From: Cafeteria roenbergensis
Taxonomy: Eukaryota > Sar > Bigyra > Bicosoecida > Cafeteriaceae
Direction: 5' to 3'
DNA length: 64,000 nt
Assembly (NCBI GenBank): GCA_008330645.1
Contig: VLTN01000006.1
Location: 248,001-312,000, forward strand
Both the position numbers and the translations under genes were made by a program. Positions 11,101 to 54,039 of the stretch are shown piece after piece; the first letter of the stretch is position 1; the number at the start of each line of letters is the position of its first letter. The notes under the pieces are model-generated. The model did not search any database, was not told where the DNA came from, and saw nothing but the letters and a program-made list of their open reading frames with translations.

Positions 11101-11907
11101 CCGCCGGAGGCCCCGGGGCCCGGACCGCGCTCGGGTCTTGCAGCGTCCACCGATGTCACGGGTAGCAAGAGTTTGCTGGCGAAGCGTGTGCGCGGCCGGC
11201 AGAGCGGCGGTGCCGCCGTCACGCCCGGCAGCCAGTCCCGAGAGGACCGGCAGGGCAGGCGCGAGCGCCGACTCGCCAAGCGGTCCGGCGAGCGCCGTGC
11301 CGGGAACGATGGGGCGCCCCCTCTGCCCCTGGCGTGGGTGGTGGACGACGAGCGGGTGAACCGCACGCTCATGGCGCGCGTGATCCGCAAGTGGGGCTTC
11401 GAGGTGCTCGAGTTCGGCGACGGGGCCGAGCTGGTGGAGGCCGTGGAGGGCGTGCTGGCCGGCCCGCCGCCCGGGGAGTCGCCGGCCGGCGGCAGGGCGG
11501 GATGCGCCGACTCCGCAGACGCCGCGTCGGGCCCTGCGCTGCCGTCGCCGCCGCCGCCATCGCCGTCGACCTCGTCGTTGCCACGATCGGGTGGCCGACG
11601 ATGGCCGGCCTTCGTGACGCTCGACGCCCAGATGCCTCGCATGGGGGGCAGCGACGCCATGGCCGCCCTGGCCGCGATCCGGTCCCGGCTGGAGTCGGCT
11701 GGTGCGACGGCAGATGCGGCGGGCCTGGCCGGCGTGCGCGTGATCGGTGTGACCGGGCAGGCGGTGGAGGAGGACCGGGATCGCTTGTCGGCGATGGGGG
11801 CGTGCTGCGTGTTGACCAAGCCCGTGGCGCCGCGGGAGCTGGCGCGGGTGGTTGCGGCCGAGGTTGCGAGTGTGAGTTTGCCGGCGACGGCGTTTGGGCA
11901 CCTGTGA
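8165..11907 (+). CDS. Hybrid histidine kinase, copy 2, with N-terminal membrane region (one frame break)
   Basis: Longer partner of the kinase at 1-2591. A first coding block (about 8180-8511) holds hydrophobic segments around 8240-8290 and 8420-8490. A second block, after a pyrimidine-rich CAG acceptor at 8857, reads MALFTGNCVM and carries several membrane helices up to about 9550. The phase of the GT at 8512 does not match the frame at 8858, so this junction is uncertain. The H-box (ISHEARS) is at about 9620-9645. One C fewer than copy 1 there shifts the frame right after SHEARS. The HATPase N-, G1- and G2-boxes (10170-10760), a linker unlike that of copy 1 (about 10865-11205) and a complete receiver domain (11335-11880; Asp in TLDAQMP) follow. 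Predicted membrane sensor with an internal phosphorelay. The frame break lies in the phospho-acceptor box, so either this copy lacks kinase activity or one base is missing from the sequence. Confidence 0.8.
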
Positions 11908-28959: not shown

Positions 28960-30192
28960 TCAGCGGTCGCCTCCGTCGTCGTCACCATCGTCGTCAGCGT
29001 CGTCGTCGTCGTGGTCGTCATCGTCGTCGGTTTCGTCCTCCTCGTCGCTGGGCTCATACCCCTGTGCCCGATCGGCCCGCTCTGGGACGCACTCTGGTCT
29101 GAACGGCTCTGCCGCTGTGTCTGCGCCGCTGTCCTTGTCCTCCTCGTCGCTGGGCTCATACCCCTGTGCCCGATCGGCCCGCTCTGGGACGCACTCTGGT
29201 CTGAACGGCTCTGCCGCTGTGTCTGCGCCGCTGTCCTTGTCCTCCTCGTCGGCCTCGTACGACACGTCATCGTCCTCGTCCGTGCGCGGGGACATGGACA
29301 CATCGTCGGCGTCCTCCTCGTCAGCGTCCCACCCCGAGGCAGAGGCAAGCCCAGCGCTGCCCGGGCTGGAGGCGTCTTGCGCAGCGTGGCCCCCTCCTCG
29401 CATCAGATGACGCAGCCTGGCCCTGGCAGCAGCGTGGGGGCCCTGACCCAGGCGTGGCGGGGGCGCCGGCCGGGCCCTGCGACCCGTCGCCACGGCGGGG
29501 CGGCGCGATGATGCCGCGGCAGCGACGGCGGCGGCTCGTGCTGCCCTGGCAAGCGGCGGGGCATCCGCGCGCCCGCCCGGCCGAGTGTCCCCGCCAGCGG
29601 CCACAAGCTCCCGGCCGGGACGGGCGCCAGGCTGCCGGCCCTCGGAACTGGCTCCCCAGCCCATCGACCACCCCGGCAGAGCTGCAAGCGACCCCGCCGC
29701 CGGGCCTTGCCGCGAAGCGCCGGCAAGCGCGTGCAGGCCGGTGGGGACTGCAGGCGCCAGGCTCGTGGCGGAAAGGGGGGCAGACCTAGCCCACCCAGGT
29801 GACAAAAATGCCCGGGGGAGGCCCTGGCCGCAGTGCGCGGTTGCCTGCTCCCACGGGCTGCGCTGCGCGCCGTCCCGAGCGCTGGTCCCGTAACTTCGTC
29901 CGTCCTCGGTTGCGCGAACGGCCTTCAGCCGCTCGGTTCGCACAGGGGAGCGGGGCCGCTTGCGGTTGAGGCGGGCAGCGCGAACTGCCTCTGAGAACGC
30001 TGTCGCAGACGTATCGCCCAGCACTCCGCTGTCCGTGGTCTCGCACGCTGCGGCCCCGCCCCTTCTGCCCGACGTGTCGCTGTTGTCTGCAAAGTAGGCC
30101 TCTGCCTCGGCTGCAGCGGCGCGAGCGGAGCCCTGCGATCGGCGAGCCACCCAGGTTGCGTCCGCCTCGTAGCCACTGTCGGACGCGCTCAT
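28960..30192 (-). CDS. Acidic, low-complexity protein, 410 aa, function unknown
   Basis: One open frame from ATG at 30192. The N-terminal ~90 residues are Ser/Asp/Ala-rich with a basic patch (RLNRKRPRSPVRTERLKA, a possible nuclear localisation signal). The middle is Pro/Gly/Ala/Arg-rich. The C-terminal ~110 residues are strongly acidic, ending in a long Asp run (DDDDDHDDDDADDDGDDD). Two exact 34-residue repeats sit in the acidic part (nt 29037-29240). No domain is recognised. An intron in the low-complexity middle is possible, since a pyrimidine-rich CAG occurs near 29745, but none is needed. Convergent with the membrane-protein gene and upstream of nothing obvious. Confidence 0.6.
   Translation of the reverse strand: MSASDSGYEADATWVARRSQGSARAAAAEAEAYFADNSDTSGRRGGAAACETTDSGVLGDTSATAFSEAVRAARLNRKRPRSPVRTERLKAVRATEDGRSYGTSARDGAQRSPWEQATAHCGQGLPRAFLSPGWARSAPLSATSLAPAVPTGLHALAGASRQGPAAGSLAALPGWSMGWGASSEGRQPGARPGRELVAAGGDTRPGGRADAPPLARAARAAAVAAAASSRRPAVATGRRARPAPPPRLGQGPHAAARARLRHLMRGGGHAAQDASSPGSAGLASASGWDADEEDADDVSMSPRTDEDDDVSYEADEEDKDSGADTAAEPFRPECVPERADRAQGYEPSDEEDKDSGADTAAEPFRPECVPERADRAQGYEPSDEEDETDDDDDHDDDDADDDGDDDGGDR
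29037..29240 (-). repeat. Tandem 102-bp coding duplication
   Basis: Two copies of a 102-bp unit in frame, encoding DKDSGADTAAEPFRPECVPE followed by RADRAQGYEPSDEE. I see no differences between the copies, so the duplication is recent or kept uniform. Confidence 0.88.
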
Positions 30193-35594: not shown

Positions 35595-38500
35595 ATGGCC
35601 GCCGCCGTCGGCGCGGACGCCGCCGCCGCCGCCGTCGCCGCCGCCCCTGCCGCGGACGAGGCGGCCATTATCGGGACGGAGGTCGGCAACAACTCGACCC
35701 GCGTGTTTACGCGCTACGTCGTGCGAGTGACTCTCGGGCCCGAGACGCTTCAGGCGAGCAGGCGGTACAACGAGTGAGGCACCGGCCGCGCGATCGGGCC
35801 TGGCCAGCCGCCTCGCGCCGGGGCGCCTCAAGGGGCGACGGCAGGGCGCGCATGCGGGGGCGATGCGCTTCCCTGCCCGTGGGCTGACTCTCGTGCCCTG
35901 GCCTCGGTTCCGTGCGTGCCACGCAGTTTCCGTCAACTCGACGGCGCAGTGCGCGCTCTTTCGGCGGGCAAGCGCCCAGGCAAGCAGGGGCTCCCCCACC
36001 TCACGGGAAGGACGTGGGGCAAGGGCACGCAAGAGCGCGTGGTGGCAAAGCGCCGGCCCAAGCTTGAAGCGTACCTGAAGGAGGTCGTGAGCCTCGCAGC
36101 GAGCTTCCCTGCCATTCGGCGACTCGTGGTGCAGTTCATGACGGACGGCATGTCGCCCGGCTCGGGTAGGCCCAGCAGTGAGCACAGCCTGTCTTCCAGC
36201 GCGGGGGATGCCGGCCGGCGCGGTCGGCTGTCGTCGATGAGCAGCTCCTGCTACATGTGCGGGCGCCCTCTGGCCCCCGACCTCGCCCCGCCGGCCGGCG
36301 AGAGCGCTTCTGGCGAGCTGCACCTCTTCTGCTCGGCCACTTGCGAGGCCTACTTCGACCGCGCCCGCGCCCTCGGCATGGAGGTGGACAGGACCGCTCA
36401 GTCGGCCGTGCTGGCCCCGGCCCGCACCAGCGCCGCCTCCGACCCAGACGCAGGGCGCGCTGCTCCCGCCGCGATCAGCAGCCCACGGTCGGCGGCCGGC
36501 AGCGCCGAGGCCGTGGTTGTGTCCCGCCCGAGCCTGGACCCGTCGGCGGAGAGCTCCCGCCAGCTGCTGCTGCGGGCCGCCGGCGCCACCCGAGGCGACG
36601 GCGGGCCAGGGCCCTTGGGGGCACCAGGGGCGACGCCCGGGCAGGTGGCCGTGTTCCGCGACTCGAGCGCGGCGGCCCCTGGCCAGGCCGCCGAGGGCGC
36701 AGACCCCGCCGAGGCGGTGACGCAGCCGGTGCTGCTGGGAAGCACGCAGGCGCCGGAGGAGGAGGCGGCCAGGTCCGCCGTGGTGGGCGCGAGCGGAAGC
36801 CGTCGCGGCCACCACGCTGCAGCCCCGTCCGGGTTTGGGGTTGCTGGCGACGACAGCCCCGCGCCCCCGCTGCGGGAGACGCGTCGGCGGACGATGCTCG
36901 CCTCGCTGGGCGACAGCCTGCGGCGCATGAGCACGACTGCGGAGTCCTCTGCCCAGCAGAGCAACGAGGCCGTCGTGAAGCGGGGGGGGCACTTGTGGAA
37001 GCGCGGCGGGTTCCGGGGGGGGCGCCAGAACTGGAAGCGCCGGTTCTTCTGTCTCATGGACAGGGCGCTACACTACTATCAGGAGACCACGCCCACGCTG
37101 CTGGGGGTCATGCCGCTCGTGGGGAGCGCGACTCCCGGGCCCGCGGCGCTGGGCGGAGGCTCCGCCTTCTTCGCGACCGTGAAGCTGCTGACCGAAGCCG
37201 AGGCGCGCCAGGCGGGGGCGCCGGCGCGCGCGTCCAAGGACGGCCGCTGGGCCTTTTCGGTCTCCACCCCGCAGCGCGTGCTGCTGCTCTGCGCGGAGAA
37301 CGCCGCTGACCGGCAGAGCTGGGCGGACGCCGTGACGGCCCTGGTGGCCAAGCACAGGGCCACGCACGTGAGCCGGCACAGCATGGGGCCGTGGCTGGCG
37401 CGGCCGGCGCCAGTCAACCCAGCGGCGCCCCCGCCGTCCCCTTCCCCCTCCACGTCCGCTGCCGGGGGCGCCGCCCCGGCCGCTGACACGGCCCCCGCGT
37501 GGGGCATGCACAGCCCCAGCGGCTTCCGTCCCCACCCCGCCGCGCTGGCGCTGAGGCAGGCCGAGGCCGCGCTCGGGATCGGCGACGGCCGCCCCGGCGG
37601 CTCCCCCTTCCCGCGCTCGCCGTCCCTGTACGTGGGCAGCCCCTCCAGCATCGTGTCGGGGGGGGGCCGCGGGCGCGACGCGCAGCCGCCCGGCAGGCTG
37701 CGCCGCCCCCGCACCACCCTCATGGACGTGGTGGCCCAGCGGGAGGCCGGCGCCGACGCAGCGGGGTCGGTGGGCGAAGCCGGGGTCGGCGTCGCAGGGC
37801 TCGGCTCGCCACTGGCGGACGCATCGTCCGGGGCCAGCGCAAGGGGCTCGCTCGCCAGGCCAGCGGACGGCTCAGCTGCGGCGCAGCCCGCCACGGCTTC
37901 CTCCGGCGAGCGCTCCGCCCGCGGCTCGGCGCAGGGCCGGCACCGCCCCTCGGGCACGTTGCCTCTGCTCCCCACCCCTCAGCCAGACTTCGCGGAAGCG
38001 CAGACGGCGGAAGGGGCGGCGCGCCGGCCCTCGCTCACAGCGGGCGGCCTGTCGCCCATCGCTGCCGAGGACGGCCGCAGCAAGCCGCGAAACCGCCTGC
38101 GCGCCCAAAGTAACGCATACGCGTCCACGTCGCGGTCCCCGCCCCCGCCTCCCGACCGCCGGAAGCGGTCAGCCTCGTCCGTCTCCACGCCCAGGGCGGG
38201 GTCCGGCGCGACCCCGCCGCCCCCGCCCCCGCGCGGACACGCGACGCAGAGCCCCCGCGAGACGGAGCCTCTCGCGCCGCCCACGCTGGCGGACCCGGTC
38301 CCGCTCACGCCCAACACCCCGCAGACGTCCGTGGCTGGCTCCCAGCCGCGGCACAGCGTGGCCAGCGCGCGCGGCATGCTGGGCGAGGAGTGGATGCCGC
38401 AGCTCTCGGGCGGGACGTGGGAGGTCGCGGAGGACGAGATTGAGGTGACGGAGCGCATCGGCGAGGGCGCGTTCGGGGACGTGTACCGGGGCCGCCTCTG

Positions 38501-41500
38501 GGGCACGGACGTGGCGGTAAAGCTGGTGCGCAAGGGCGTGGCAGAGCTGGGCAGCGAGGCGCTGGAGGCGCTTCGCGCAGAGGTGACGGTGCTGTCGCAG
38601 CTGCGGCACCCCAACGTGGTGCTGTACCTGGGGGCGGGAACGCGCCCGCCCTCCGTCTTCATCGTGACCGAGTGGTGCGAGCGCGGGGACCTGAACTGCC
38701 TGCTGTACGACACCGCGGCGCCGCTGTCGGTGGCGGCGCGAGTGCGGCTCGCCCTCCACGCCGCGCAGGGCCTGACCTACCTGCACTCGCAGCGGCGCGG
38801 CATCGTGCACCGGGACCTCAAGAGCCACAACCTGCTGCTCACGCGGCACTACATTCTCAAGGTGGCCGACTTTGGCCTCACAGTGTTCCAGGGGGAGCTG
38901 GCCAAGGTGGCTGCCCCCGAAGACGCCGCCACGGAGGAGGACGCGGCGGCCCCAGGGGGCGGCCCCGCCGACGGCGCGGTGGGGACCCCGCAGTGGATGG
39001 CGCCGGAGGTCCTGGAGGGACACCGCTACGACGAGAAGGTCGACGTCTACTCGTTCGGCGTGGTGCTGGCAGAGCTGTGCTCGCGCGTGGAGCCGTACAG
39101 CGACCGGTTCAAGCGGTGGGACTTCGTCGAGGCGGTCTTGGAGGAGGGCGCGGCGCCCACCATGCCGCTGTGGGCGGACGCGCCACCCCCCGTGGATGAC
39201 GTCATCGCGGCCGAGGCGCAGCTTACAACGCTTGAGGCGCGGACGAAGCCCCCCCAGGCGGCGGCGGCCCAGCCGCAGGCGGCGAGGCAGCGGTCGCACT
39301 CGAACGCGTCGGGGCACAGCGACGCGCACTCGACCTCCAGCAGGCGGCGGCAGGCAGCGCCCCTGGGTGCCAGCGCGCCCACCACGGACGGCTCCGGGCC
39401 CGGCAGCCTGGGCGGGGGGGGCGCCTCCGTTGGCTCCCCCGCGCACAGCTTCAAGGCCTCCTCCAGGGGAAGCTTCTCCCACCTATCGCTGCCCCAGCTC
39501 TCGCGGGCGCTGCAGGACGCCGCGGGCCTGAGAGACGACGACTTCCAGACCCGGACGACGGAGCCCCTCGTCGCGCCCGCGGGGGCGGCCTCTCCGCCCC
39601 CCATCCTCCCCGCCATGTTCCGCCGTCTGCCGCTGTGGTGGACCAGCGACGCGGCCTTTTGCGCCGCGCTCGCCGGCGCGGCCGACCCCTCCACGTGCCT
39701 GGTCCCGGGACCGTCCGCCGCCGGGGGGGTCGGCTCCACGGTCGCCTTTGCGCTCGCGGCGCTCCCGGAGCCCGGGCGGGCGACGCGCGACCTGGCCATG
39801 GGCGACGCTCCCCTGGTTGCAGCTCTGCGCCAAGCGCGCTCGGGCCTGCTGGCGGTGCCCGAGGGGGAGCGGTTTCCCTCCCGCGTCAAGCCCGCGGAGT
39901 CTTTGTCCGCCGAGTGGCGGTCCCTCCCGGGGCGCGCAGAGGAGTGGCGGTGCATGCACGGCGACTGCACAGGGGTGCTCCAGCTCCTGGCCACGGCCTG
40001 CCTCAGCCGCGACCCCGACAAGCGGCCCAGCTTCGACGAGATCGCCGACCTGCTGGGGGCGCTGCTCGCCTCGCAGCAGGGCAGGATGTTCCTGGAGCTC
40101 GAGGTGCCGCGGTTTCGCGAGGAGCTTGCGTATGGCAGCCGCCAGGTGCAGCTGCGCGCGGCGGCGGAGATCTCGCACGTGGCCTCTCACGCGCTGCTCG
40201 CAGCCAGCCGCGCTCTCTGCCCGGCAGGCTCGGCGGACGCCGCGGGGCTGTGGTTCCCGGGGCTCGACTGCGACGTGGCCGTGCACTACGAGAGGCAGGC
40301 GCTGGAGGAGCCGGCCGACCGCGAGGCCGCGCTTCGGCCGGGCGCGAGCGCGGCCACTGCCAGGGTGCCTGACGCCCTGTGGGCCTGCGCCGACCTGCCC
40401 TTCGCGTTTGCGAGCACGCTGGGCGCGGCAGCCGTCGCCTCCGCCGGCCCCGCTGCCGCTTTCGCTGCGGAGCCCCGGTGCCCCGTGTCGGCCTGCGACA
40501 CTCCCGCCCTGAGGCAGGGGGCGCCCGAGCTGGTGGCCGCGCTCGCTGGCTGCATGCGCGCCCACGGCGCGATGCTGCGCCTGCATGCTGGCCTGCCGCT
40601 GGAGGCAGACGCCACGCCTGCAGTGCTCGCCCAGCTCGAGGAGCTGGCGGCTGCCGGGGTGTTCGGCCTGCCCGCCGGGGCGGCGCCCCTCGCTCGCAGG
40701 CGCACCGTGTCGGGCACCACGAGCCCGCCCGCGGAGCCGAAGCAGCACAGGGCCGGACCGAAGTCCTCCGCGGCGCAGGGACAGCCCCGCCCCGCCGGGG
40801 CGGTCCTCGTGCCCGTGTCGCGCCGGGCCCGCGACGCCGCGGCCGCCCAAGCCGCGGCCGCCCAAGCCGCGGCAGAGCTGCCGCCCAAGCGCGACGACGG
40901 GCCTGCCGACCCGACGCCGAGCAAGGCCAAGCCCGTCCGTCGCGCCCGGCGCGGCAAGGCCCGAGGCCCCGTGGGGCCAACCGCGGCCGAGAGCCAAGAG
41001 CTGCTCACGCGCTGCGTGGAGGCGCTGGCCGTGCTGCTCCGGGCCTCCGTGGCCACCCCGCGCCCCGAGCCGGAGGAGCCCCTCAGCCCCGCGCAGGCCG
41101 CGGCGGAGGCGGAGTTGGCGCGACTGAGGGAGGTGTCCGACTCGGTCGGACTCCTGTGGCTGCGCGTGCGGGACTGCCTCCTGCCAAGCCTGGGCAGGCT
41201 CGCGCACTCGCTGTCGCTGCTGGCGGTGTGTCCCGGCAGCAAGCACGGCGAGGGCCCCCTCCCCTCAGAGCTGTGGCCGAGGGACGCGGCAGCGGCTGCG
41301 GCGCTGCTGGTGGCCTGCTGGTCGGCCTGCCCCGGCCAGCGAGCCCGCGGCCTCCTGGCCTTCACGATCAGCCACACGCTGGCGCACGCCGTTGCAGCGG
41401 CCGCCGAGGCCGACTCCACGCCTGCTCGCGCCGCGCTTCGCTGCCGCGCCCTCCTGGAGCTCAAGCTCGGAGATGCCTCCGCTGGCCTGCCCTCGGCAGA

Positions 41501-41552
41501 GCTTCGCGCCGCGTGCATCGCCGTGCTTGACCGGGTCATCATGTTTGAGTGA
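35595..41552 (+). CDS. PX - zinc motif - PH - TKL (Raf/MAPKKK-like) protein kinase, 1934 aa
   Basis: Two exons, 35595-35773 and 35927-41552 (GA/GTGAGG donor, CACGCAG acceptor). The joint RRYND-FRQLDGAVRAL completes a PX domain (about residues 25-115; TRVFTRYVVRVTL, RRYNDF, KRRPKLEAYL), a phosphoinositide binder. Next come a Cys pair motif (about 167-205; CYMCGRPLAP to FCSATCEAYF), a long Ala/Ser-rich stretch and a PH domain (about 410-538; GHLWKRGGFRGGRQNWKRRF to ADRQSWADAV). A TKL kinase domain starts near 890: IGEGAFGDVYRG, VAVKLVRK, IVHRDLKSHNLLL (HRD near 1018), VADFGLTVF, GTPQWMAPEVL. A ~230-residue insertion splits the C-lobe before DKRPSFDEIADLLGALL. The last ~480 residues are helical and low-complexity. 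All catalytic residues are present. A predicted lipid-recruited signalling kinase; partners are unknown. Confidence 0.9.
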
Positions 41553-41693: not shown

Positions 41694-42416
41694 TCAGAAC
41701 ATGCCCACACGGCGCATGATGTTGTGGCCGCGCATCGCGTGGAAGCCAACAGCACCGATGTGGACAGGGATCATGTACTCCAGCGCCTGGCCGGTCAGCT
41801 TGTGCACCTTGAAGGCCTGCTTGGCGATCGCGCCGTTGGGCTCAGCCGCGCCCGGGATCTTGTAGCCGAAGAACGGCAGGCCCTTGCCCCCGAAGTAGCC
41901 CATGGCGATGCCGGTGCCAGGAAGGATGATCATCATGGCGTACAGCACACCGTGCGAGAGCTTGCCGGCGAGCGCCTGCCATGCCGGGCCGGGAACGGAG
42001 CTCGGGGCCTTGGTCACGAGGCGGATAGCGACGCGGGGGACGATGGCGCCTGCCATGAGGAGCCCGCAAGACTTGTGAATGTTCATCAGCTGGCCCTTCC
42101 GCTCGCCCTTGACCTGCTGAGCAGCAAGAACAGTGCCGACGCAAGTCAGCAGGCCAGCCGCCATGATCCAGTGCAGGTAGCGGATCGCCGGCGCGTACCG
42201 CTCCTCCATCGCGGGGGGGACCTCGGCCTTGGGAGCGCTTGACGACATGCGCTTCTGCAGCGCCAGGCGAGAGCGGGCCACGGCCGGCGACGCGCGGGCA
42301 ACGGTGCCGCGAGACCCAGCGGTGCGGAATGCCCGCGCGCCCTGCGCGGTCATGAACGACCGGGACGGGCCCATGCTCGAGCGGGCGAGTGCAACGGCGA
42401 ATGCGGTGGCTTTCAT
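41694..42416 (-). CDS. Bacterial-type cytochrome b561 with organelle-targeting presequence, 240 aa
   Basis: Membrane b-type cytochrome, predicted electron carrier. The first ~60 residues are Arg/Ser/Ala-rich with no acidic residues (MKATAFAVALARSSMGPSRS), typical of mitochondrial import. The rest has four helices and the conserved His of the prokaryotic b561 family: RYLHWIMAAGLL, NIHKSCGLLMAG, GKLSHGVLYAMMIILPGTGI and KVHKLTGQALEYMIPVHIGA with GFHAMRGHNIMRR. GYFGGKGLPFFGYKIPG is also family-typical. Single exon; the ATG at 42414-42416 starts the presequence. Not the same family as animal CYB561. The best guess is inner mitochondrial membrane; the redox partner is unknown. It ends 141 bp after the TKL kinase gene on the opposite strand. 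Confidence 0.85.
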   Translation of the reverse strand: MKATAFAVALARSSMGPSRSFMTAQGARAFRTAGSRGTVARASPAVARSRLALQKRMSSSAPKAEVPPAMEERYAPAIRYLHWIMAAGLLTCVGTVLAAQQVKGERKGQLMNIHKSCGLLMAGAIVPRVAIRLVTKAPSSVPGPAWQALAGKLSHGVLYAMMIILPGTGIAMGYFGGKGLPFFGYKIPGAAEPNGAIAKQAFKVHKLTGQALEYMIPVHIGAVGFHAMRGHNIMRRVGMF

Positions 42417-42691
42417 GCTTGCGAACAGCCTCAAGTCGGGTGTGAAGAAGCCGGCCAGCTGGGCAGCAGCGGCCCCGTGTTCGGCGCGACGATCGACCAA
42501 TCGCCTGCGACCTTGGGCAGCGCGCTGCAACTCGCGCGCGAACCTGCACCACAAGCGGATTCCGCCGGCCCCAATGCCGGAAAGCAGCCCGAGACAACGC
42601 CCGGGCCCGTCTCGGGCAAGACCATTGCGGATCGCTGGACGCTCGATACCGAGAACGGAATGCGAGCGGACGCGCAAGCGAGGCAAAAAGT

Positions 42692-42765
42692 CATCTGACG
42701 CAGGACTCGAACCTGCAACCTCCCGATCCGTAGTCGGACGCGCTATCCAATTGCGCCAGCCAGAC
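42692..42765 (-). tRNA. tRNA-Arg (anticodon ACG)
   Basis: Folds as a complete cloverleaf on the minus strand: acceptor GTCTGGC with GTCAGAT (two G-U pairs), D-arm GCGC/GCGC, anticodon stem TCCGA/TCGGG with loop CTACGGA (anticodon ACG, read as inosine-CG), T-arm GCAGG-TTCGAGT-CCTGC. No intron. A TTTTT run (plus-strand AAAAA at 42685-42689) directly follows as a Pol III terminator. Confidence 0.95.
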
Positions 42766-45394
42766 AGATGAAGGGAGGAGAGCGAAAAAGAATCTCTGAT
42801 GTACTGTTTGCTAGGATGCAGGGAATGTTGGATTCCGCACCGAGCGAGCACGCTCCCTGCGTTTCACCCACTGCTACAAGCGAGAGCAGCAGTAGCCAGC
42901 TCCCGGAAGAGCAACGCGTCCCGTCCCCAGGCGAGCAGCTTGAATTCCTTGCCGAGCTGAGAAGTTGGGCTGCCGGGTGGAACGGCGCCACGCTCGCAGT
43001 GAGACTGAGTGCCGACAGCCCCCCCTCCCCCTCCCGGTCAGCGCGCCCTGCAGCTCGCTTGGCACTTGGCACGGCTTTCCCAGTGCCAGTGCGTTGCCCT
43101 TCAGCGCTGACGATGCCCGGCGCATGTGCCAGCCAAGGATGCTTGAGGTGCGTGGAAGCGGGGCTGGGATGTGGCAGCTGCGAACCTACTCTGGCGAGAT
43201 ACCGAGACAACAACAGGACTTGCCAGTCATCTTTGCATGCGTGCCAAGGAGTCGTACCAACTAAGCCCGCCGACGACGGCGCCCAAACCTCAAAGACGTT
43301 GGCCATTCGAGGGACAGGTTGGTGCTTTGGCACGCTTGCAGGTCAGTCAGCCGAGCGCTGTCTGCCCCATTGTGAGAAGAGAGGCATTACCAGCCAAATT
43401 GATTGTCGGAGCCAGTCTGTTTTTGCCCCCGTGACGTTGTGGATGCGACCTCAGCGCACTCCTCTCGCAAGCAAGTCGGCGAGATACCGCTCAGCAAGCC
43501 AGATTCAGAGTCGTACAGCAGTCTGCTTGAGGAGCCTCGTCTCGCCCGGCGGAGAAACCCAAGCCAGACTGTGTTGCAAGTGCAATGCATCGCACTCCTG
43601 TGAATGTTCGCGTGTATTTGTGACTTTGTCTGAGACCGAACCTATAAGAGTCACACGTACATGTTCTCGAGAGAAGGGGAGCTTGCCGTTGTCTGGTGGT
43701 TCTGGACTTTGCGCTGGCAAATGGACAGAAAGTGAGGGTTGTGCGCAACAATATTTGCACCTATCTGGGTGATCTGAACCGTGGTGAGGGGGGTGACCCA
43801 GTTTCCGGCAGAGCTGTGTCTTGCTTCCGTGTTCGAAACGGAGCGTGATCAACTCTGTCGCAATCTCGAAGTGAATGCACACTCTCTGTGCTTTAGAATC
43901 GTGGCAATGGTGTATGAACAACAATCACACACTTGAGTATTGTTCAAGAGCAAAGTACGATACTTGGCAAAGGATCAAGGTCCTGGTAAAAGAAGGAACT
44001 ATTGCAAGTATGACCCGTTTGCATGTTCGACCCGAGTGGTACCTGCCACAACAATGACTCGAAGTGGGATGCGCTTCTGCCGTACAAGCTGTGCTTACTG
44101 AGTGGGAAGACGTAATGCGATGACACTGTCCTCCTTGGAAGCTGTGCATTGCGTTGTCCAGGTGCCACACCTGACCTCAGCAGGTGTCTTTGTCGACGTA
44201 ACATTAGAACCTGCTTCCGTTTCGATAGTCAAGACCTGACGTGAAAAGCAACGCCTTCTAAATTGGCTGGCACTTGAGTCTCGACTGAAGCTGAGCGTCG
44301 AAACACCGCAGGCGCTGTACTGCAGCACTCGTGAAGCAGAGACTCTAGCAGCACTAGCGATGCCTGATGCGCACCCGCAGTGCTCCACTTGGCCTCCGAT
44401 TCATCGGCAGCCTCGCCATCCACGAGGAAAGAATCGTCAGAAATCCCACGCAGCGTGATTTTGTCCGTGCTCTTGAGTTTTTGCTCTTTCCGACGAAGCG
44501 CTTGCGACGCGAGTGGCGTCAATGAAGGCGCTGTTCCTTGGACACCCAGCGTCTGAATTCAAGTGCTCCTGCAGTAGCGCTCCGAATTGTTCGTGAGAGT
44601 TTGTCGACAGTCAACCCAGTAGGCAATCGTCAGGCCCCCTTTCCATTGTTGCCAGCTCAAGAACACAGCACTGCCATGGAGTCCCATAGCCAGCACCTGT
44701 TTCAGCCCCATTTTCTACTGATGGTTGGCTATGGCTTCAGTAGTGGTGTCTTCTCGCCAGTTCTTGCTAAGACCACGTTCCAGTATTCGCCCGAACCAGA
44801 CTAGCAAAGATCCGCATGTCGATGACAATGACTTGCTTCATCATCCAGAAAGACCCATGTTCGCTGCCGTGAAGCATACACACGCAAACCTGCTCGTACC
44901 ACCATGCCTCATCGCCTGCGATCACTCCACCTGCCAAGTTTGTTGCCGGCCCCCTCTTTCACACAGTCGGTCGTATTTTCTCCGGGCCTGGAGCTCGTTG
45001 TATGCGGCCTTTCGGGCGTCCCGAGGGTCCAGTGCTGTGTTCTCGTTTGCGTCCTCGCTGGAGCTGCTTGGTCACAAACCTGTGTGCCTGGGCTCACTTT
45101 GGGTGCGAGGGAGGGCTCCACACCCGTCGTTCGCGACGATATTCGCAACGCACTTGCCAACTTCTCGTTTCGATATCGACACAAGCAAGCTTGCCTCTCT
45201 GCATTCCAGCCCGCTGCCACAAGGCCGCACAAGTTGGCCCCTTGTTCTGTCGCTATTTCTGCTTGGGCAGCCTCAGACGCAGTGCCGTCCCTGGCCAGCG
45301 ATGCCCAGGGGCGGCCCCTGCTTCCGGTCCACGCAGAGCTTTGAGCTTGGGGCGACGCGACCCGTCAGCGCTCCGGCGCCGTGGCTCTCAGCAT
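42766..45394. other. Gene-poor, lower-GC stretch
   Basis: About 2.6 kb with only short open frames on either strand, none with a recognisable domain. From about 43390 to 45230 the base composition is close to balanced, in contrast to the strongly GC-rich genes on both sides. No inverted ends or tRNA-like features were found apart from the tRNA at its left edge. Confidence 0.6.
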
Positions 45395-45479: not shown

Positions 45480-46111
45480 GCCGGGGTCCAGCGAGGCCGC
45501 GCGCAAGCGACCGGACCTGCGGGTGCACGTCGACTTCGAGACCACCCGTCTCGTCGACGTGCAGATCACCTCGGCGGTGAGCAAGTCCTACGTGACGCAG
45601 GGCCTGCAGAGCATGGACGCCTTTCTCGAGCGCCGTGAGAAGGACAAGATGGGGGAGTACAAGAAGAGCTCAGCTACAAAGGACAACATGAGCTCCATTG
45701 TGCCCTTCGTCGTCACGACCACGGGACGCATGGGACCGGCGGCCTTCGCCTTCCTCAAGAAGGTGGCGGACACGGCCTTTGGTGACCGGCCGAGGGAGCG
45801 TGCGCGCTGGGCCTTTCGCTGGCTATCGAGGCTGAACGAGGTCATCGCCAAGGGACTGGCGACCCAGCTGATCGGGCAGACGCAGTACCTGCGACAGCAG
45901 GTGGAGCGTTTGCGGTGAGCAGGGGTGGTTGAGTGGCGACTCGTGGCGGTGTGATGGAAGTGATTTGGGACTTGGGACTTGTGATTGCGGGTTTGGCGCG
46001 GTTTGTGATTCATCGGTGATGGAGTTGCTGGATTGGTGATTGGTGAGTCTGTGAATTGAGTGTGTGGTATGGTGACGCGAGTTTTCGACCCCCCCCAACG
46101 ATGTTCATTCA
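45477..46111 (+). mobile_element. 5'-truncated LINE, copy A (C-terminal endonuclease domain and 3' UTR)
   Basis: The coding part reads KRPDLRVHVDFETTRLVDVQ and continues to FLKKVADTAFG and YLRQQVERLR, stop near 45916. It is the end of a restriction-enzyme-like endonuclease domain (RPD ... VDV) as found after the reverse transcriptase in R2/NeSL-type LINEs. The 3' UTR has a TGG/GACTTG-rich stretch and a C-run, and ends AACGATGTTCATTCA at 46111, the last base shared with copy B. The frame is open over this piece. The reverse transcriptase is absent. Confidence 0.8.
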
Positions 46112-49100
46112 CGCATCAGCTCGAATCGGAGGCGTTACCGGACAGCAGGAGGATGCCCCCCATAAAGCCAAGCGGCGGCGACGGTGCCATCGTTGGTTGC
46201 ACTCGGCTCGTTGGAGCACACCGGCAATGTAATCGCAGCCGCACAGATCCAACGCTACCTTGCCAGTCTGCGATATCCATTGCCCAACCGATACACAGAG
46301 CCATTGTCCTGGCAAGACAGCTTGCAGCACATATGATGCTTTGCAAACACTCAATGCCAGCACAGCCATGAGCGCGGACTCACCAAGCTCTGGGCTTCCA
46401 CTTCTACACCGCGGGCTACCAGCACCTCCACAGTTTCTTCGTAAGTGTTCATCACTGCCACCATCAGTGCCGTATGGCCATACTGCGACGCCACGTGCCC
46501 TCAGCGACCACAGCCCCTCACAACATGCGACGGGCGCCACCTCCCGCCAGCCAGCCAGCTGTCCACGCCTGCCTTGACGCAGTCCCGATTGCTATCGCAG
46601 TCCACGGTGCGCCCACTCCACGCACGCTCTGTCCGCCCCCAAAACGGCATCCTTGTCGCCGAACTCACGCGGTTCTTGGCCTCCATGTCAGCGCCCCAGT
46701 CCAGCAGCAGCTCAACAGTGTTCCTGTGACGCCCCCCTGCCACGTCCATCAAATCCGCGTAGCTTCGCTGCGTTACCACGTGGTCTCAACGTCTGCTGCC
46801 CTCCTTGTGGCATGCAACGGGCGTCGCCTGCCGCCAGCCAGCCAGCGGTCCTAAACTGTCATGACGCAGCCCGATCGCCATCGCAGCCCACGGCCCGCCC
46901 ACATCACGCACGCTCTGTCCGAACCCGAAGCGGCATTCTCCTCGCCTGACTCACGCAGTCCTCGGCCTCCTCGTCGGCGCTCCAGCCCAGCTGCGTCTCC
47001 ACACCCTCTCTGTGACGACCCTCTGCCGCAGTCATCAGCGCCGTGCAGCCACCCTGCGGCAACACGTGCCCTCAGCGACCACAGGCCCCTCTCACAGCAT
47101 GCGACGGGCGCCGCCTCCCGCCAGCCGCCCAGCGGCTTTCAGCACGCATTGATGCAGCCCTGATCACCATCGTAGTCGACGACCCGCTCACTGCACGCAC
47201 GCTCTGTCCACCACCGAAGCGACATCGTCCTCGCCGAACTCACCCGATCCTTGGCCTCCACGTCGGCGCCCCTTTCTAGCAGCAGCTCAACAGTTTCTCT
47301 GTGACGACCCCCTGCCGCATCGATGAGTGCTGTGTCGCCATCCTGCGGCACCACGTGCCCTCAACGACCACAGTCCTCGCGACATGAGACGGGCGCCGCC
47401 TCCCGCTTGCCGCACGGCGGCTTAGAGCCTGCCATGTCGCAGCCCTGAGAGCGATCGCGGATCGGGGCCCGCCTGCTTCACCCATGCGCCGCCCGCCCCC
47501 AAACTGCATCCTTGTCGCCGAACTTACTTCGGCCTTGGCCTCCAAGTCGGCACCTCGATCCAGCAGCAGCTCAACAGTGTCCCTGTGTCCATGCCGCGCC
47601 GCAACTATCAGTGCCGTGTAGCCAAACTGCGACGCCATGTGCCTTCAACGACCACAGCCCCCTTCACGGAATGCGGCGAGCGCTACCTCCCGCTCACTAT
47701 CCAGCGGCACCCAGCCCGACATGTCACCGTCGTCATTGCGGTTTGCGGCCTTTCGGCTTTACCCACGCGCTGTCGGCCCCCAAAGCGGCATCCTTGTCGC
47801 TGAACTCACCTGGCCCTTGGTCTCCAAGTCGGCACCACGGTCAAGCAGCAGCTCAACGGTGTCCCTGTGGCCACCTTGTGCCGCAGCTATCAGTGCTGTG
47901 TCGCCAAACTGCGACGCCATGTGCCCTCAACGACCACAGCCCCCTTCACGGAATGCGGCGAGCGCTACCTCCCGCTCACTATCCAGCGGCACCCAGCCCG
48001 ACATGTCACCGTCGTCATTGCGGTTTGCGGCCTTTCGGCTTTACCCACGCGCTGTCGGCCCCCAAAGCGGCATCCTTGTCGCTGAACTCACCCGGTCCTT
48101 GGCCCCCACGTCGGCGCCCCGATCCAGCAGCCACTCAACGGTGTCGCTGTGACCACGTGCTGCAGCAACTGCGAGCAAACTGACGCCATCCTGCGGTGCC
48201 ACGCACTCTCAACAATCACAGCCCCCCTCGTGTCACGCGACCAGGACCACCTCCTGTGCACCGCCCGGCGGCACTCATCATGCCGTGCCTCTGCTTCCGT
48301 CGCCTTCGCGATTCGCGACCCGCCCGCTTCACCCGCGCGCAGTCCACTCTTGAAACGGCATCCTCCTTGCCCAACTCACGCAGTCCTTGGCCTCCAGGCC
48401 GATGTCTCGTTCCAGCAGCAGCTCCACATTTTCATTGTGACCACCTGCTGCCGCCTTCATCAGCGCTGTGCTGCCATCCTGCGGCGCCACGTGCCCTCAG
48501 CGACCACAGGCCCTCCTCGCTACATGAGACAGGCGCCACCTCCTGTAAGCCACCCTGGGACATTCTGCCCGACGTGTCACCGTCGCCGTCGTCATCGCGG
48601 TTTGCGGCCCATCCGCTTCGCCCGCAAGCTGTCGGCCCCGAAGCGGCATCCTTGTCGCCGAACTCACCCGGTCCTTGGCCTCCACGTCGGCGCCCCGGTC
48701 CAGCAGCAGCACAACAGTGTCCCTGTGTCCACGCCATGCCGCCATGATCAGTGCCGTGTAGCCATGCTGCGATGCCAGGTGCTGTCAACCATCATGGCCT
48801 CCCTCGCGGCATGACATGGGCACCACCTCTCGCTCGCAGCCTGCCGGCCGCCAGCCAGCCATGCCGCTGCGCTGATCGTCATTGCAGTCCACGGGCCGCC
48901 CCTGAAGCGGAATCCTCGTCGCCGAACTCACCCAGTCCTTGGCCTCCATGTCAGCGTCCTTGTCCAGCAGCAGCTCAACAATGTGCCTCTGACCACGTGC
49001 TGCCGCCCTCATCAGCGTCGTGAAGCCATTCTGCGATACCACGCGCCCTCAACGATCAAAGCCTCCCCATCGCGTCATAAGATGGGCGCGACCTCCCGCT

Positions 49101-52100
49101 CGCCGCTCGGCGGCGTCAAGCCTGCCATGACGCAGCCCCGATCGCAAATCGCAGTCCACGGACTGCCCACTCCAGCCGCGCGCAGCCCACCCCCCAAACG
49201 GCATTCTCCCTGCCCGACTCACCCGGTCCTTACCGTCCACATCGGCGCCCCTGTCAAGCAGCAGCTGAACAGTGTCCTTGTGGTCACCTCGTACCGCATT
49301 GCTCAGTGCCGTGTTGCCATACTGCAGCGCCACGTGCCCTCAACGATTGCAGCCGCCTCTCATTGCGTCACGAGACGGGCGCCACCTCCTGCTCACCGCC
49401 CAACGGCGTCCAGCCTGCCATGTCGCAGCCCTGAGAACCATCGCTGTTCCTGGCCCGCCCGCTTCACTCGCGCGCGGCCCGCCCCGAAACGTCATTCTCC
49501 TCGCCGAGCTCACTTCGTCCTTGGCCTGCACGTTGGCGCCCCGATCCAGCAGCAGCTCAACCGTGTCTGTGTGGCCACCTGCTGCTGCAGTGATTAGCGA
49601 CGTGTTGCCATACTGCGGCGCCAAGTGCCATCAACGATCGAAGCCCACTCTCATCGCGGAATGCGACGGGCGTCACTTCCCGCTCGCCGCCAGGTGGCAC
49701 TCAGCCTGCCAAGTCACAGTCCTGATAGCCATTGCGGCTTGCGGCCCGCCTGCTTCACCCGCGCGTGGTCCGCCCCCGAAGCGGCATCCTCCTCGCCGAG
49801 CTCACCCAGTCTGTATGGTCAACTCGGACGCCCAGGTCCAGCAGCAATTCAACCATGTCTCTGTGGCCGCCTTCTGCCGCCTCCTTCATCACGATGGAAC
49901 TTGCCTGCGATGCCAAATTCCCTCAACGATCACAGGCTCTCTCACAGCTTGCGACGGGCGCCGCCTCCCGCTCGCCGACCTGCGGCCCCGTGCCTGCCAT
50001 GCCACCGTCCCGATCGCCAGGCGCAGTTCACGGCCCGCGTGCTGCACCCGCGCGTGGCCTGTCCCCGAAGCGGCATCCTCCGAGCCCGACTCACGCGGTC
50101 CTTAGCGTCCAAGGAGGCGCCACGGTCCAGAAGTAGCGCAGCCGTAGCCCTGTGGCCACCTGCTGCCGCCTTCATCAGCGCCGTGTTGCCATACTGCGGC
50201 GCCACGTGCCCTCAACGACCACAGCCTCTCCATCGCGGCATGAGACGGGCGCCACCTCCCGCTCGCCGCACGCCGGCTTAGAGCCTGCCATGTCGCAGCC
50301 CTGGGAGCCATCGCGGTTTGCGGCCCGCCTGCTTCGCCCGCACGTGGACCACCCCCGAAGCGGCATCCTCCGAGCCCGACTCACGCGGTCCTTAGCGTCC
50401 AAGGAGGCGCCACGGTCCAGAAGTAGCGCAGCCGTAGCCCTGTGGCCACCTGCTGCCGCCTTCATCAGCGCCGTGTTGCCATACTGCGGCGCCACGTGCC
50501 CTCAACGACCACAGCCTCTCCATCGCGGCATGAGACGGGCGCCACCTCCCGCTCGCCGCACGCCGGCTTAGAGCCTGCCATGTCGCAGCCCTGAGAGCCA
50601 TCGCGGTTTGCGGCCCGCCTGCTTTGCCTGCGCGCGACCCGCCCCCGAAGCGTCATCATCCTCGCCGAACTTACTTCGGCCTTGGCCTGCACGTCGGCGC
50701 CCCAGTCCAGCAGCAGCGCAGCCGTGGCCCTGTGGCCACCTGCTGCCGCCTTCATCAGCGCCGTGTTGCCCATCTGCGTCGCCACGCACCCTCAACGACC
50801 ACAGCCTCCCCCTCGCGGCATGAGACGGGCGCGACCTCCCGCTCGCTGCCCGGCGGCTTAGAGCCTGCCATGTCGCAGCCCTGGGAGCCATCGCGGTTTG
50901 CGGCCCGCCTGCTTTGCCAGCGCGCGACCCGCCCCCGAAGCGGCATCCTTGTCGCCGAATTTACTTCGGCCTTGGCCTGCACGTCGGCGCCCCAGTCCAG
51001 CAGCAGCTCCACAGTGTCCCTGTGGCCACCTCGTGCCGCATTGGTCAGCGCTGTGTTGCCAGTCTGCGCCGACACGTGCCCTCAACGACCACAGCCCCCC
51101 CAGCCTCGCGGCATGAGACGGGCGCCACCTCCCGCTCGCCGGCCCGCGGCGTTGAGCCTGCCATGCCACAGCCTCGATCGCAATGCACGGCCCACGGACT
51201 GCCAACTTCACCCACGAGCGGCCCAGCCGCGAATCGTCGTCCACACCCAACTCACCCTGTCCTTGGCCTGCACGTCGGCGCCTCTGTCAAGAAGCAGCTC
51301 CACAATGTCCCTGTGGCCACCTGCTGCCGCCTCCAACAGCGCCGTGTTGCCATACTGCAGCACCAAGTGCCCTCAACGACCACAGCTGCCTCTCATTGCG
51401 TCGTAAGATGGGCGCCGCCTCCCGCTCGCCGACCGGTGGCGTCCAGCCTGCCATGTCGCAGCCCTGGGAGCCATCGCGGTTTGCGGCCCGCCTGCTTCGC
51501 CCGCACGTGGACCACCCCCGAAGCGGCATCCTCCGAGCCCGACTCACGCGGTCCTTAGCGTCCAAGGAGGCGCCACGGTCCAGCAGCAGCGCAGCCGTGG
51601 CCCTGTGGCCACCTGCTGCCGCCTTCATCAGCGCCGTGTTGCCCATCTGCGTCGCCACGCACCCTCAACGACCACAGCCTCCCCCTCGCGGCATGAGACG
51701 GGCGCCACCTCCCGCTCGCCGCACGCCGGCTTAGAGCCTGCCATGTCGCAGCCCTGAGAGCCATCGCGGTTTGCGGCCCGCCTGCTTTGCCTGCGCGCGA
51801 CCCGCCCCCGAAGCGGCATCATCCTCGCCGAACTTACTTCGGCCTTGGCCTGCACGTCGGCGCCTCTGTCAAGAAGCAGCTCCACAGTGTCCCTGTGGCC
51901 ACCTGCTGCCGCCTTCATCAGTGCCGTGTTGCCATACTGCGGCGCCACGTGCCCTCAACGACCACAGCCCCCCCAGCCTCGCGGCATGAGACGGGCGCGA
52001 CCTCCCGCTCGCCGCACGCCGGCTTAGAGCCTGCCATGTCGCAGCCCTGAGAGCCATCGCGGTTTGCGGCCCGCCTGCTTTGCCTGCGCGCGACCCGCCC

Positions 52101-52913
52101 CCGAAGCGGCATCATCCTCGCCGAACTTACTTCGGCCTTGGCCTGCACGTCGGCGCCTCTGTCAAGAAGCAGCTCCACAGTGTCCCTGTGGCCACCTGCT
52201 GCCGCCTTCATCAGTGCCGTGTTGCCATCCTGCGGCGCCACATGCCCTCAACGATCGAAGCCTCCCCGTTGCGGCATGAGACGGGCGCCACCTCCCGCTC
52301 GCCGCACGGCGGCTTAGAGCCTGCCATGTCGCAGCCCTGAGAGCCATCGCGGTTTGCGGCCCGCCTGCTTTGCCTGCGCGCGACCCGCCCCCGAAGCGGC
52401 ATCATCCTCGCCGAACTTACTTCGGCCTTGGCCTGCACGTCGGCGCCTCTGTCAAGAAGCAGCTCCACAGTGTCCCTGTGGCCACCTGCTGCCGCCTTCA
52501 TCAGTGCCGTGTTGCCATCCTGCGGCGCCACATGCCCTCAACGATCGAAGCCTCCCCGTTGCGGCATGAGACGGGCGCGACCTCCCGCTCGCCGACCGGC
52601 AGCTTCCAGCACGACATGCCTTCGCGCCTGTAGGCGCCGCTTCCCGGGCTGCCCCGCACGTTTTCCAGCGCGGACCGTGGCACAACCGCGCAACCGGTGA
52701 TAGAATTGCAACGTGCTGGTTTTGTTGCGCCCGGTGCCCTCGGCAGCGAGGGGGAAGCATGTCACCTGTCCCAGCGCTCACGTCCGCGTCACTTTTCCAG
52801 TCCACCGGCGCGCCCGCATCGAGCAGCCTGCTAGCTTCGGCAGTGTTCCCGGCCTTCGCAAGCTCCAAAAGCGTGTTGCCCAATGCCTTTACCCTCATAG
52901 CAGGGGAGGCCAT
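46109..52913 (-). CDS. 24-exon ankyrin-repeat protein, one repeat per exon, 822 aa
   Basis: First exon 52782-52913 (MASPAMRVKALGNTLLELAK; 44 codons). Then 22 exons of exactly 99 nt, each one 33-residue ankyrin repeat such as GNTALMKAAAGGHRDTVELL. Their left edges are 52421, 52131, 51838, 51548, 51256, 50965, 50675, 50385, 50095, 49806, 49514, 49223, 48932, 48668, 48380, 48092, 47810, 47528, 47244, 46955, 46669 and 46384 (each +98). The last exon, 46109-46267, ends in RAECNQRWHRRRRLALWGAS. Every intron is phase 0, 116-262 nt (mostly 183-194), with donors GTAAGT or GTGAGT and acceptors CGCAG or similar. Repeats from 50.0 to 52.6 kb are nearly identical in exon and intron; those near the 3' end are diverged. 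There is no signal peptide, membrane helix or second domain. Likely a cytosolic protein-binding scaffold; the partner is unknown. The stop codon coincides with the last bases of LINE copy A. Confidence 0.88.
50000..52620 (-). repeat. Homogenised ~290-bp exon-intron tandem array
   Basis: At least nine consecutive units of 290-293 bp, near-identical across both the 99-nt exon and the ~191-nt intron. This is the younger, 5' half of the ankyrin gene. Older units to about 46.4 kb keep the same period but have diverged. Confidence 0.88.
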
Positions 52914-54039
52914 GTCGTCGGACGCTCCTGGTGGCGGGCAAGCGCAGTTTGGGAGCTGTGGACCGGCCAGGCATTTTCGCGGAGCCCGAAGGACACAGCG
53001 ATCGTTCAACTTTGGGTTGAATGACTTGGGGTTCAGAGTTCGAAGAGGCTCTCAACTTGCGCATGCTTCCCAGCCAGCCGCGCCGCGGGCCGGCAAGCGA
53101 GATGCGACATGTTGGCCGCGGCGAGCGAGGCCTCTGTGGCACGCCAAAGCCTCTCAATCTCATTTTGTGTTGAACGTTGCTGGATGTGATGGAAACCTGG
53201 AGCTGCTGTCCGGTCGAGTTGAGCGGCCGACGCCCTCAGACACTGCTGACCTACGTGGGCGTTGAGAGGACGCGCGCGGGTGGAAATCTGATGCTGACTT
53301 GAAAGGCTCAAGTTCGGCGAGGCGGAAGTCACACGGGGTGGTACAAGGGACGGGAGGGAGTGGTCACGCGCTTGAATCGAGCGCGCACACACCACACGGG
53401 GCTGCTGACCTGTGTGGGCGTTGAGAGGCCGCTCGATGGTGAAGGACTGGTGTTGACCTAAAAGGCTTAAGTTCGGCGCGGCCGGGACCGCACGGGGTCG
53501 CCCGAGGGACGGGAGGGAGGGCTCAAACGATCGAATCGTTCGGTAACCGGTTGGGTTCGTATTTGTCCGCAGACGTAGATTCCACCCCGACAAAACAGAC
53601 GAGCCATCTGGCATCGTCCCGACACTCTCCTGGGCGACGCGGCTTCCCCACAGCGTGTTGGGGGTGCCCCCGGCGTGACTCAGAGAGTCCCGAGCTCTAG
53701 TCTACCCGCCTGCGTCGGCGGCCAAGACAAGCAGCTCGCTGGCAAGGCGCGCGCAGCGTGCGCTTCGCTTTGCCCGCCGTGCCGTGCGAACGCTCGCGCA
53801 GCACCCCAGGGCCCGTTGCGGTTGGCTTTGAGGTTGTGTGAGAGCAAAGCCGCATTCGTGACCCGCCTGCCCATCCCGCGGCAGGCTGGGAGGTGGCTTG
53901 CGAGGTTTCAGTGCCCCTGTGGGTGCAGTCTCCGAGCAAGGCACTGCCACTCCCAGCCCGCTGGCGCCGGACACCTAACAGGTGCCCATTTGGCCACTGC
54001 TGGATACATGATCACCATTCCCTACGATCACACGCACCA
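52914..54039. other. Upstream of the ankyrin gene; no gene seen
   Basis: About 1.1 kb. It presumably contains the ankyrin promoter near 52914-53050. It also holds a two-unit tandem repeat at 53250-53540. No coding frame with a recognisable product. Confidence 0.5.
53250..53540. repeat. Two ~150-bp tandem repeat units, related inverted copy at 55100-55215
   Basis: Both units begin GACCT(A/G)(C/T)GTGGGCGTTGAGAGG and share GGCT(C/T)AAGTTCGGCG and GGGACGGGAGGGAG. The reverse complement of the second unit's end (CCCTCCCGTCCCTCGGGCGACC) recurs at about 55155-55185, inside the insertion in LINE copy B. Dispersed repeat family of unknown type. Confidence 0.7.

What the first reader, a model, noticed from the sequence alone, without database searches (positions are those of the whole stretch)
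46109..52913. Ankyrin gene built from 22 identical-length exons, one 33-residue repeat each
Every internal exon is exactly 99 nt, starts at the same place in the ankyrin repeat and is bounded by phase-0 introns. Any exon can therefore be skipped, duplicated or deleted without breaking the frame or the fold. The 5' half is nearly uniform in exon and intron, so the array has been expanding or converting recently. It looks like a cassette system for making ankyrin scaffolds of variable length, by unequal crossing-over or by alternative splicing.
Basis: partly seen in the sequence, partly recalled or inferred. Interest (0 to 1): 0.85.

Follow-up and report, generated by a model that had tools for sequence, protein, structure and literature searches.

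The report
Ankyrin gene, one repeat per exon
An unidentified, GC-rich eukaryote carries a gene that spells a long ankyrin-repeat protein with 22 exons of exactly the same length, one repeat each; parts of the array are recent copies, and the design is already known for other repeat proteins.

Summary
On the minus strand, 46109-52913 reads as a 24-exon gene: a 132-nt first exon, 22 exons of exactly 99 nt and a 159-nt last exon, joined by 23 GT-AG introns, all phase 0, predicting 822 aa. The 22 repeats are ankyrin; the two end exons have no Pfam match alone. Absence of stops, absence of exon indels and a conserved core point to selection on the spliced protein, though overall pN/pS is high, 0.67-0.77. 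The array is young in places: exact 269- and 241-nt copies lie one 290-bp unit apart. Exon 7 is a mosaic with its breakpoint inside the exon, so the exchanged unit is the exon-plus-intron repeat, not strictly the exon. '5' half nearly uniform' is overstated: two exon subfamilies alternate there. Unequal crossing-over or conversion is well supported as history; variable length by alternative splicing is possible by design (253 of 253 contiguous skips in frame) but untested. Uniform-exon arrays are known for LRR genes of Tetrahymena and brown algae, so this is a new member of a known kind. Odd detail: introns 16 and 17 differ at 1 of 183 sites between exons 17-29% different.

The parts
52782..52913 (-). 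exon 1 (132 nt): ATG and, by my reading, an N-terminal cap repeat
   Evidence: no Pfam match alone
52520..52781 (-). first intron, 262 nt, GTGAGC...GCAG; its last 59 nt equal those of intron 1
52421..52519 (-). 99-nt repeat exon 1
52131..52229 (-). 99-nt repeat exon 2 (identical to repeat exon 1)
51838..51936 (-). 99-nt repeat exon 3 (1 nt from exons 1-2)
51548..51646 (-). 99-nt repeat exon 4 (second subfamily)
51256..51354 (-). 99-nt repeat exon 5
50965..51063 (-). 99-nt repeat exon 6; the donor after it is GTAAAT
50675..50773 (-). 99-nt repeat exon 7: mosaic, first 69 nt as exon 4, last 27 nt as exon 3
50385..50483 (-). 99-nt repeat exon 8
50095..50193 (-). 99-nt repeat exon 9 (identical to exon 8)
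49806..49904 (-). 99-nt repeat exon 10 (diverged; lacks the G-x-T motif)
49514..49612 (-). 99-nt repeat exon 11
49223..49321 (-). 99-nt repeat exon 12
48932..49030 (-). 99-nt repeat exon 13
48668..48766 (-). 99-nt repeat exon 14
48380..48478 (-). 99-nt repeat exon 15
48092..48190 (-). 99-nt repeat exon 16
47909..48091 (-). intron 16 (183 nt), 1 mismatch to intron 17
47810..47908 (-). 99-nt repeat exon 17
47627..47809 (-). intron 17 (183 nt), 1 mismatch to intron 16
47528..47626 (-). 99-nt repeat exon 18
47244..47342 (-). 99-nt repeat exon 19
46955..47053 (-). 99-nt repeat exon 20
46669..46767 (-). 99-nt repeat exon 21
46384..46482 (-). 99-nt repeat exon 22 (most diverged)
46268..46383 (-). last intron, 116 nt, GTGAGT...GCAG
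46109..46267 (-). last exon (159 nt with TGA): by my reading a partial C-terminal repeat and an arginine-rich tail
   Evidence: no Pfam match alone

Best explanation
This is a spliced nuclear gene of an unidentified GC-rich eukaryote. It encodes an almost pure ankyrin solenoid of 22 uniform repeats between two end pieces that I read as cap repeats, 822 aa. I expect it to be spliced mostly end to end into one long protein-binding scaffold. The array grows, shrinks and homogenises in the germ line by unequal crossing-over and gene conversion between exon-plus-intron units of about 290 bp. Any in-register exchange keeps the frame and the fold, whether its breakpoint lies in an intron or in an exon. 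The older 3' half has diverged with its core kept and its exposed positions free. Shown here: anatomy, frame, splice signals, core constraint, recent duplications and one intra-exon mosaic. Inferred: expression, constitutive splicing, germ-line timing, binding function.
For: Anatomy. Ankyrin identity: Pfam Ank_2 E 2.3e-149 and Ank E 1.5e-142 for the spliced 822-aa protein; best PDB match Ankyrin-1, E 4.1e-103, for the 396 aa of repeat exons 1-12. No stops in frame, no exon indels. In exons 11-21 the nonsynonymous difference is 0.138 at 14 core positions (interval 0.07-0.22), against 0.29 for introns and 0.34 for synonymous sites. Exact repeats of 269, 241 and 229 nt at lags 290, 290 and 293. 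Exon 7: its first 69 nt and the 59 nt of intron before it equal unit 4, its last 27 nt and the next 21 nt of intron equal unit 3; 48 informative sites, 0.94 then 0.00 like unit 4, P 0.0005, the floor of 2000 permutations. Exon difference rises weakly with separation, Mantel r 0.25, P 0.008. Single-intron retention gives a premature stop, 23 of 23. Another gene of the window, with an M24 metallopeptidase domain, has a GTGAGT...CGCAG intron by my reading.
Against: No transcript, protein or second allele; no genome held. pN/pS among repeats is 0.67-0.77 and some neighbouring pairs (12/13, 13/14, 14/15) have pN at or above pS, so constraint outside the core is weak and a decaying gene is not strictly excluded. 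The end exons have no Pfam match alone. The copy number depends on an assembly that I cannot check.
Confidence: 0.75

Rival explanations
1. Cassette gene used by alternative splicing: transcripts skip different exons to make ankyrin scaffolds of many lengths and surfaces.
For: 253 of 253 contiguous skips stay in frame. In Ectocarpus, ROCO genes with one LRR per exon have up to nine splice variants (PMC11378527, passages), and exon modularity of LRR domains with skipping is reported for NLRP3 (PMC6642158, abstract and passages).
Against: The junction signals are nearly alike along the array (donors GTRAGY in 22 of 23), with no contrast of weak and strong sites. Intron retention, not exon skipping, is believed to be the prevalent mode outside animals (PMC6142364, start of abstract in the listing). 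No RNA data.
Confidence: 0.15
2. Decaying or unexpressed array: once a gene, now a repeat evolving mainly by turnover.
For: pN/pS 0.67-0.77, with pN at or above pS in some neighbouring pairs; degenerate repeats 10, 20 and 22.
Against: 0 stops in 429 codons of exons 10-22, no exon indels, GT-AG in 23 of 23 introns, core positions below the intron level.
Confidence: 0.08
3. The introns are a mobile, introner-like family that inserted at the same place of each repeat.
For: Introns 16 and 17 match at 182 of 183 sites while adjoining exons differ at 17 and 29 of 99 sites, as if introns moved on their own.
Against: No convincing similarity of introns 1-21 to the rest of the window: four hits of 16-35 nt, E 0.003-0.009. 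Exon and intron are duplicated together in exact blocks.
Confidence: 0.03

Closest known systems
Tetrahymena LRR genes with arrays of exactly 90-bp exons (PMC6564038, passages)
   Same: Tandem array of exons of one exact length and one phase in a eukaryotic microbe's repeat-protein genes; variable exon number; ectopic recombination inferred
   Different: LRR, not ankyrin; phase 2, so that exons interlock by split codons; a family of many genes there, one gene visible here
Brown-algal ROCO LRR genes, 72-bp exons (PMC11378527, passages; the original report, Zambounis 2012, is not held)
   Same: One repeat per exon, one phase, exon turnover
   Different: LRR, phase 2, joined to ROC-COR GTPase; splice variants and positively selected positions are reported there, not shown here
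Vertebrate ankyrin genes ANK1-3 (exon structure from recall; the listings did not give it and I opened none of their ANK1-3 papers)
   Same: Recalled: 24 ankyrin repeats, many 99-bp exons of one repeat each. Seen: best PDB match of repeat exons 1-12 is Ankyrin-1
   Different: Recalled: repeats well diverged, some exons with two or more repeats, ZU5/UPA/death domains after the repeats; Pfam finds none of these domains here
Large ankyrin arrays in general (PMC7314423, abstract and passages)
   Same: Arrays of 24 repeats are exceptionally frequent, and 22-24 is read there as about one superhelical turn; this gene has 22 repeats, 24 if both end pieces count as I read them
   Different: A survey of proteins; in the passages seen exon structure appears only as one possible mechanism

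Membership tests
Ankyrin-repeat protein family | 33-residue repeats matching the ankyrin profile in tandem | tested here: met
   Pfam Ank (16 stretches) and Ank_2 on the spliced protein; end exons alone do not match
Ankyrin-repeat protein family | helix-turn-helix-hairpin solenoid fold | not tested
Vertebrate-type ankyrins (ANK1-3) | ZU5, UPA and death domains after the repeats (recalled) | tested here: not met
   At E up to 0.001 only ankyrin-type families, and one other hit below its cut-off
Uniform-exon repeat arrays | at least three consecutive exons of identical length, one phase, one repeat period each | tested here: met
   22 of 22, phase 0
Uniform-exon repeat arrays | recent unequal exchange between units | tested here: met
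Alternatively spliced repeat-cassette genes (ROCO type) | transcripts with different exon combinations | not testable with these tools
   no RNA held
Introner-derived introns | similar introns in unrelated genes of the same genome | tested here: inconclusive
   none convincing in the 64-kb window; no genome held

The most novel reading that the evidence does not exclude
The gene is a diversity generator. Exons are kept different at exposed positions while introns are homogenised and keep the array recombining (introns 16 and 17 match at 182 of 183 sites between exons with synonymous difference 0.34-0.35), so that the lineage, or even cells within a population, carries a changing repertoire of ankyrin recognition surfaces, multiplied further by exon skipping.
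Probability: 0.08. Interest if true: 0.8.

Novelty: new member of a known kind. Interest (0 to 1): 0.42.

Why it matters
It is a clean natural example of a repeat protein whose gene, exon and fold share one period, with both fresh and old copies in one array. It lets one measure how solenoid arrays grow, where exchange breakpoints fall and whether exons and introns homogenise separately.

Tried and rejected
Origin of the window: no genome is held. The tRNA and Rfam scans each gave the same single tRNA. Introns and gene content say eukaryote; I could not name it.

Relatives: two patterns, which match the window itself 8 and 12 times with 0 expected, gave 0 stretches: the 3' intron end in viral contigs, the exon end plus donor in viral contigs and genome contigs. 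The protein scan of viral contigs gave 1 relative among 10 candidate stretches, a 123-aa ankyrin ORF, 41% identical, contiguous over the match. These collections are viral and prokaryotic, so absence says little about eukaryotes.

Coding otherwise: 6 of the 10 plus-strand ORFs of 150 aa or more lying inside the array (list), one minus-strand ORF overlapping exon 1 and one upstream of it have no Pfam match at E 0.1.

Diversifying selection: in exons 11-21 six surface positions (recalled from designed ankyrin libraries) differ more than random sets of six, P 0.005, with pN 0.43 against pS 0.34 there, but their bootstrap interval, 0.26-0.56, includes the intron level 0.29. I do not claim positive selection. 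Core and surface lists were both written into after the variability table had been seen; repeat position 24, semi-variable in those libraries, was left out of the six, and position 31, which is in the six, is in fact conserved. Over all 22 exons, core is 0.12 and surface 0.41, with introns at 0.25; over exons 10-22, 0.18 and 0.47, with introns at 0.29.

MaxChi: of eight named triples, three (4/3/8, 6/3/11, 5/3/11) were not significant; the five others reached the floor of 2000 permutations. The triples were chosen after seeing the repeat blocks. The scan of all triples has no correction for multiple tests and was used only as a pointer.

Literature: no text giving exon lengths of ankyrin genes was found; the vertebrate comparison stays recall.
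Full report
What is there. The minus strand of 46109-52913 contains a 24-exon gene model. A scan for AG, an open frame of 90-108 nt, GT and an ankyrin-like start gave 24 candidates: 20 of the 99-nt repeat exons, one covering most of exon 1, and three spurious overlaps. Two further 99-nt exons lack the start motif; after I corrected my first placement by 1 and 3 nt they too have AG and GT borders. The model is exon 1 of 132 nt with the ATG, 22 exons of 99 nt, and a last exon of 159 nt with TGA; 2469 nt coding, 822 aa; 23 of 23 junctions are phase 0. The finding's coordinates equal this span. The 23 introns run GT...GCAG and measure 116-262 nt, the 21 internal ones 165-194 nt.

Is it a gene? Three lines agree. 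First, the coding frame has 0 stops in 726 codons against 37 and 23 of 704 in the other frames; for exons 10-22 it is 0 of 429 against 22 and 16 of 416. Second, the repeat exons never change length, while the internal introns have 11 lengths and 15 gap classes. Third, in exons 11-21 the nonsynonymous difference is 0.138 at 14 core positions, 0.30 at other positions and 0.43 at six exposed positions, while introns stand at 0.29 and synonymous sites at 0.34. The units share ancestry, so P values are indicative. Retaining any single intron gives a premature stop, 23 of 23, and without splicing no frame of the strand stays open beyond 160 codons. Against this, pN/pS among repeats is 0.67-0.77 and some neighbouring pairs have pN at or above pS; a survey of protein repeats reports strongly relaxed constraint between copies as general (PMC5120217, abstract and passages). 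Expression is not shown.

What the protein is. Pfam finds ankyrin families in the spliced protein (Ank_2, E 2.3e-149; Ank, 16 stretches) and nothing else above its cut-off. Exon 1 and the last exon alone match nothing, so calling them caps is my reading. The strongest PDB matches to repeat exons 1-12 are Ankyrin-1 and designed or chimaeric ankyrin proteins. With both end pieces the array would have 24 repeats, the length reported as exceptionally frequent, and 22-24 has been read as about one superhelical turn (PMC7314423, abstract and passages). The most variable repeat positions are 1, 3, 8, 11 and 33; the most constant are G2, L6, A9, A10, H14, L21 and L22. This is what a binding scaffold would show; a partner cannot be inferred.

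How the array evolves. Exons 1 and 2 are identical, exon 3 is 1 nt away, exons 8 and 9 are identical. The longest exact repeats are 269 nt (first intron through repeat exon 1 into intron 1, repeated one unit on), 241 nt (intron 7 through exon 8 into intron 8, repeated one unit on) and 229 nt. The first two are tandem copies with ends in introns. Exon 7 is different: its first 69 nt and the 59 nt of intron before it equal unit 4, its last 27 nt and the next 21 nt of intron equal unit 3, and the MaxChi break falls between exon nt 66 and 79 with unit 3 as the second parent and between 56 and 70 with unit 6. So exchange also happens inside exons, and it is harmless because the register is kept. 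Exon difference rises weakly with distance in the array (Mantel r 0.25, P 0.008). The 5' half is young but not uniform: two subfamilies differ at 21-23 of 99 nt.

The odd detail. Introns 16 and 17 differ at 1 of 183 sites; the identity ends 6 nt into exon on one side and 1 nt on the other. The exons compared differ at 17 and 29 of 99 sites (Fisher P 9e-8 and 7e-14, post hoc), with synonymous difference 0.34-0.35. A conversion tract that happened to span one intron is the simplest account. Selection against homogenised exons, or copying of the intron by itself, are bolder ones. No intron shows convincing similarity to the rest of the window.

Comparison with the known. Arrays of exons with one exact length and phase are described in Tetrahymena LRR genes, 90 bp, phase 2, where ectopic recombination is inferred (PMC6564038, passages), and in brown-algal ROCO genes, 72 bp, phase 2, with splice variants (PMC11378527, passages). 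Human LRR domains show exon modularity with skipping (PMC6642158, abstract and passages). A survey of domain repeats held that exon shuffling explains only some families and that ankyrin domains rarely duplicate one at a time (PMC1553488, passages); single-unit duplication is plain here, which departs from that trend. From recall, vertebrate ankyrin genes have many 99-bp exons; the listings that I saw do not state it. The gene is thus a new member of a known kind; ankyrin fold, phase 0 and extreme regularity are its own features.

Limits. One sequence, no RNA, no named organism, no genome. Exact repeats reach 269 nt, so the repeat number should be checked with long reads. Outside the 22 exons the window holds no further match to their profile better than E 0.2.

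Noticed in passing
47627-47809 and 47909-48091: Neighbouring introns 17 and 16 differ at 1 of 183 sites although the exons around them differ at 17 and 29 of 99 sites.
   Followed up: partly
3848-6213: About 80 copies of a 30-bp minisatellite, partly open on the plus strand (ORF 3630-4598) with a repeated peptide such as VSRVYVALED.
   Followed up: no
298-2160 and 9852-11476: Direct duplication 9.3-9.6 kb apart, 97-100% identical in three 300-nt blocks; an ORF in each copy carries a histidine-kinase-type ATPase domain and a response-regulator receiver domain.
   Followed up: partly
53243-53538: 1.9 copies of a 159-bp repeat, 330-625 bp upstream of the ankyrin gene's ATG.
   Followed up: no
41694-42851 minus: A prokaryotic-type cytochrome b561 domain (Ni_hydr_CYTB) in the C-terminal part of an open frame of a eukaryotic contig; the frame's beginning overlaps the tRNA-Arg at 42690-42766, so its true start lies further in.
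   Followed up: no
35916-41552 plus: An 1878-aa open frame with a PH domain and a protein kinase domain.
   Followed up: no
29035-29251: A 102-bp unit repeated 2.1 times with 100% match, lying in the acidic end of the minus-strand ORF 28960-30192.
   Followed up: no
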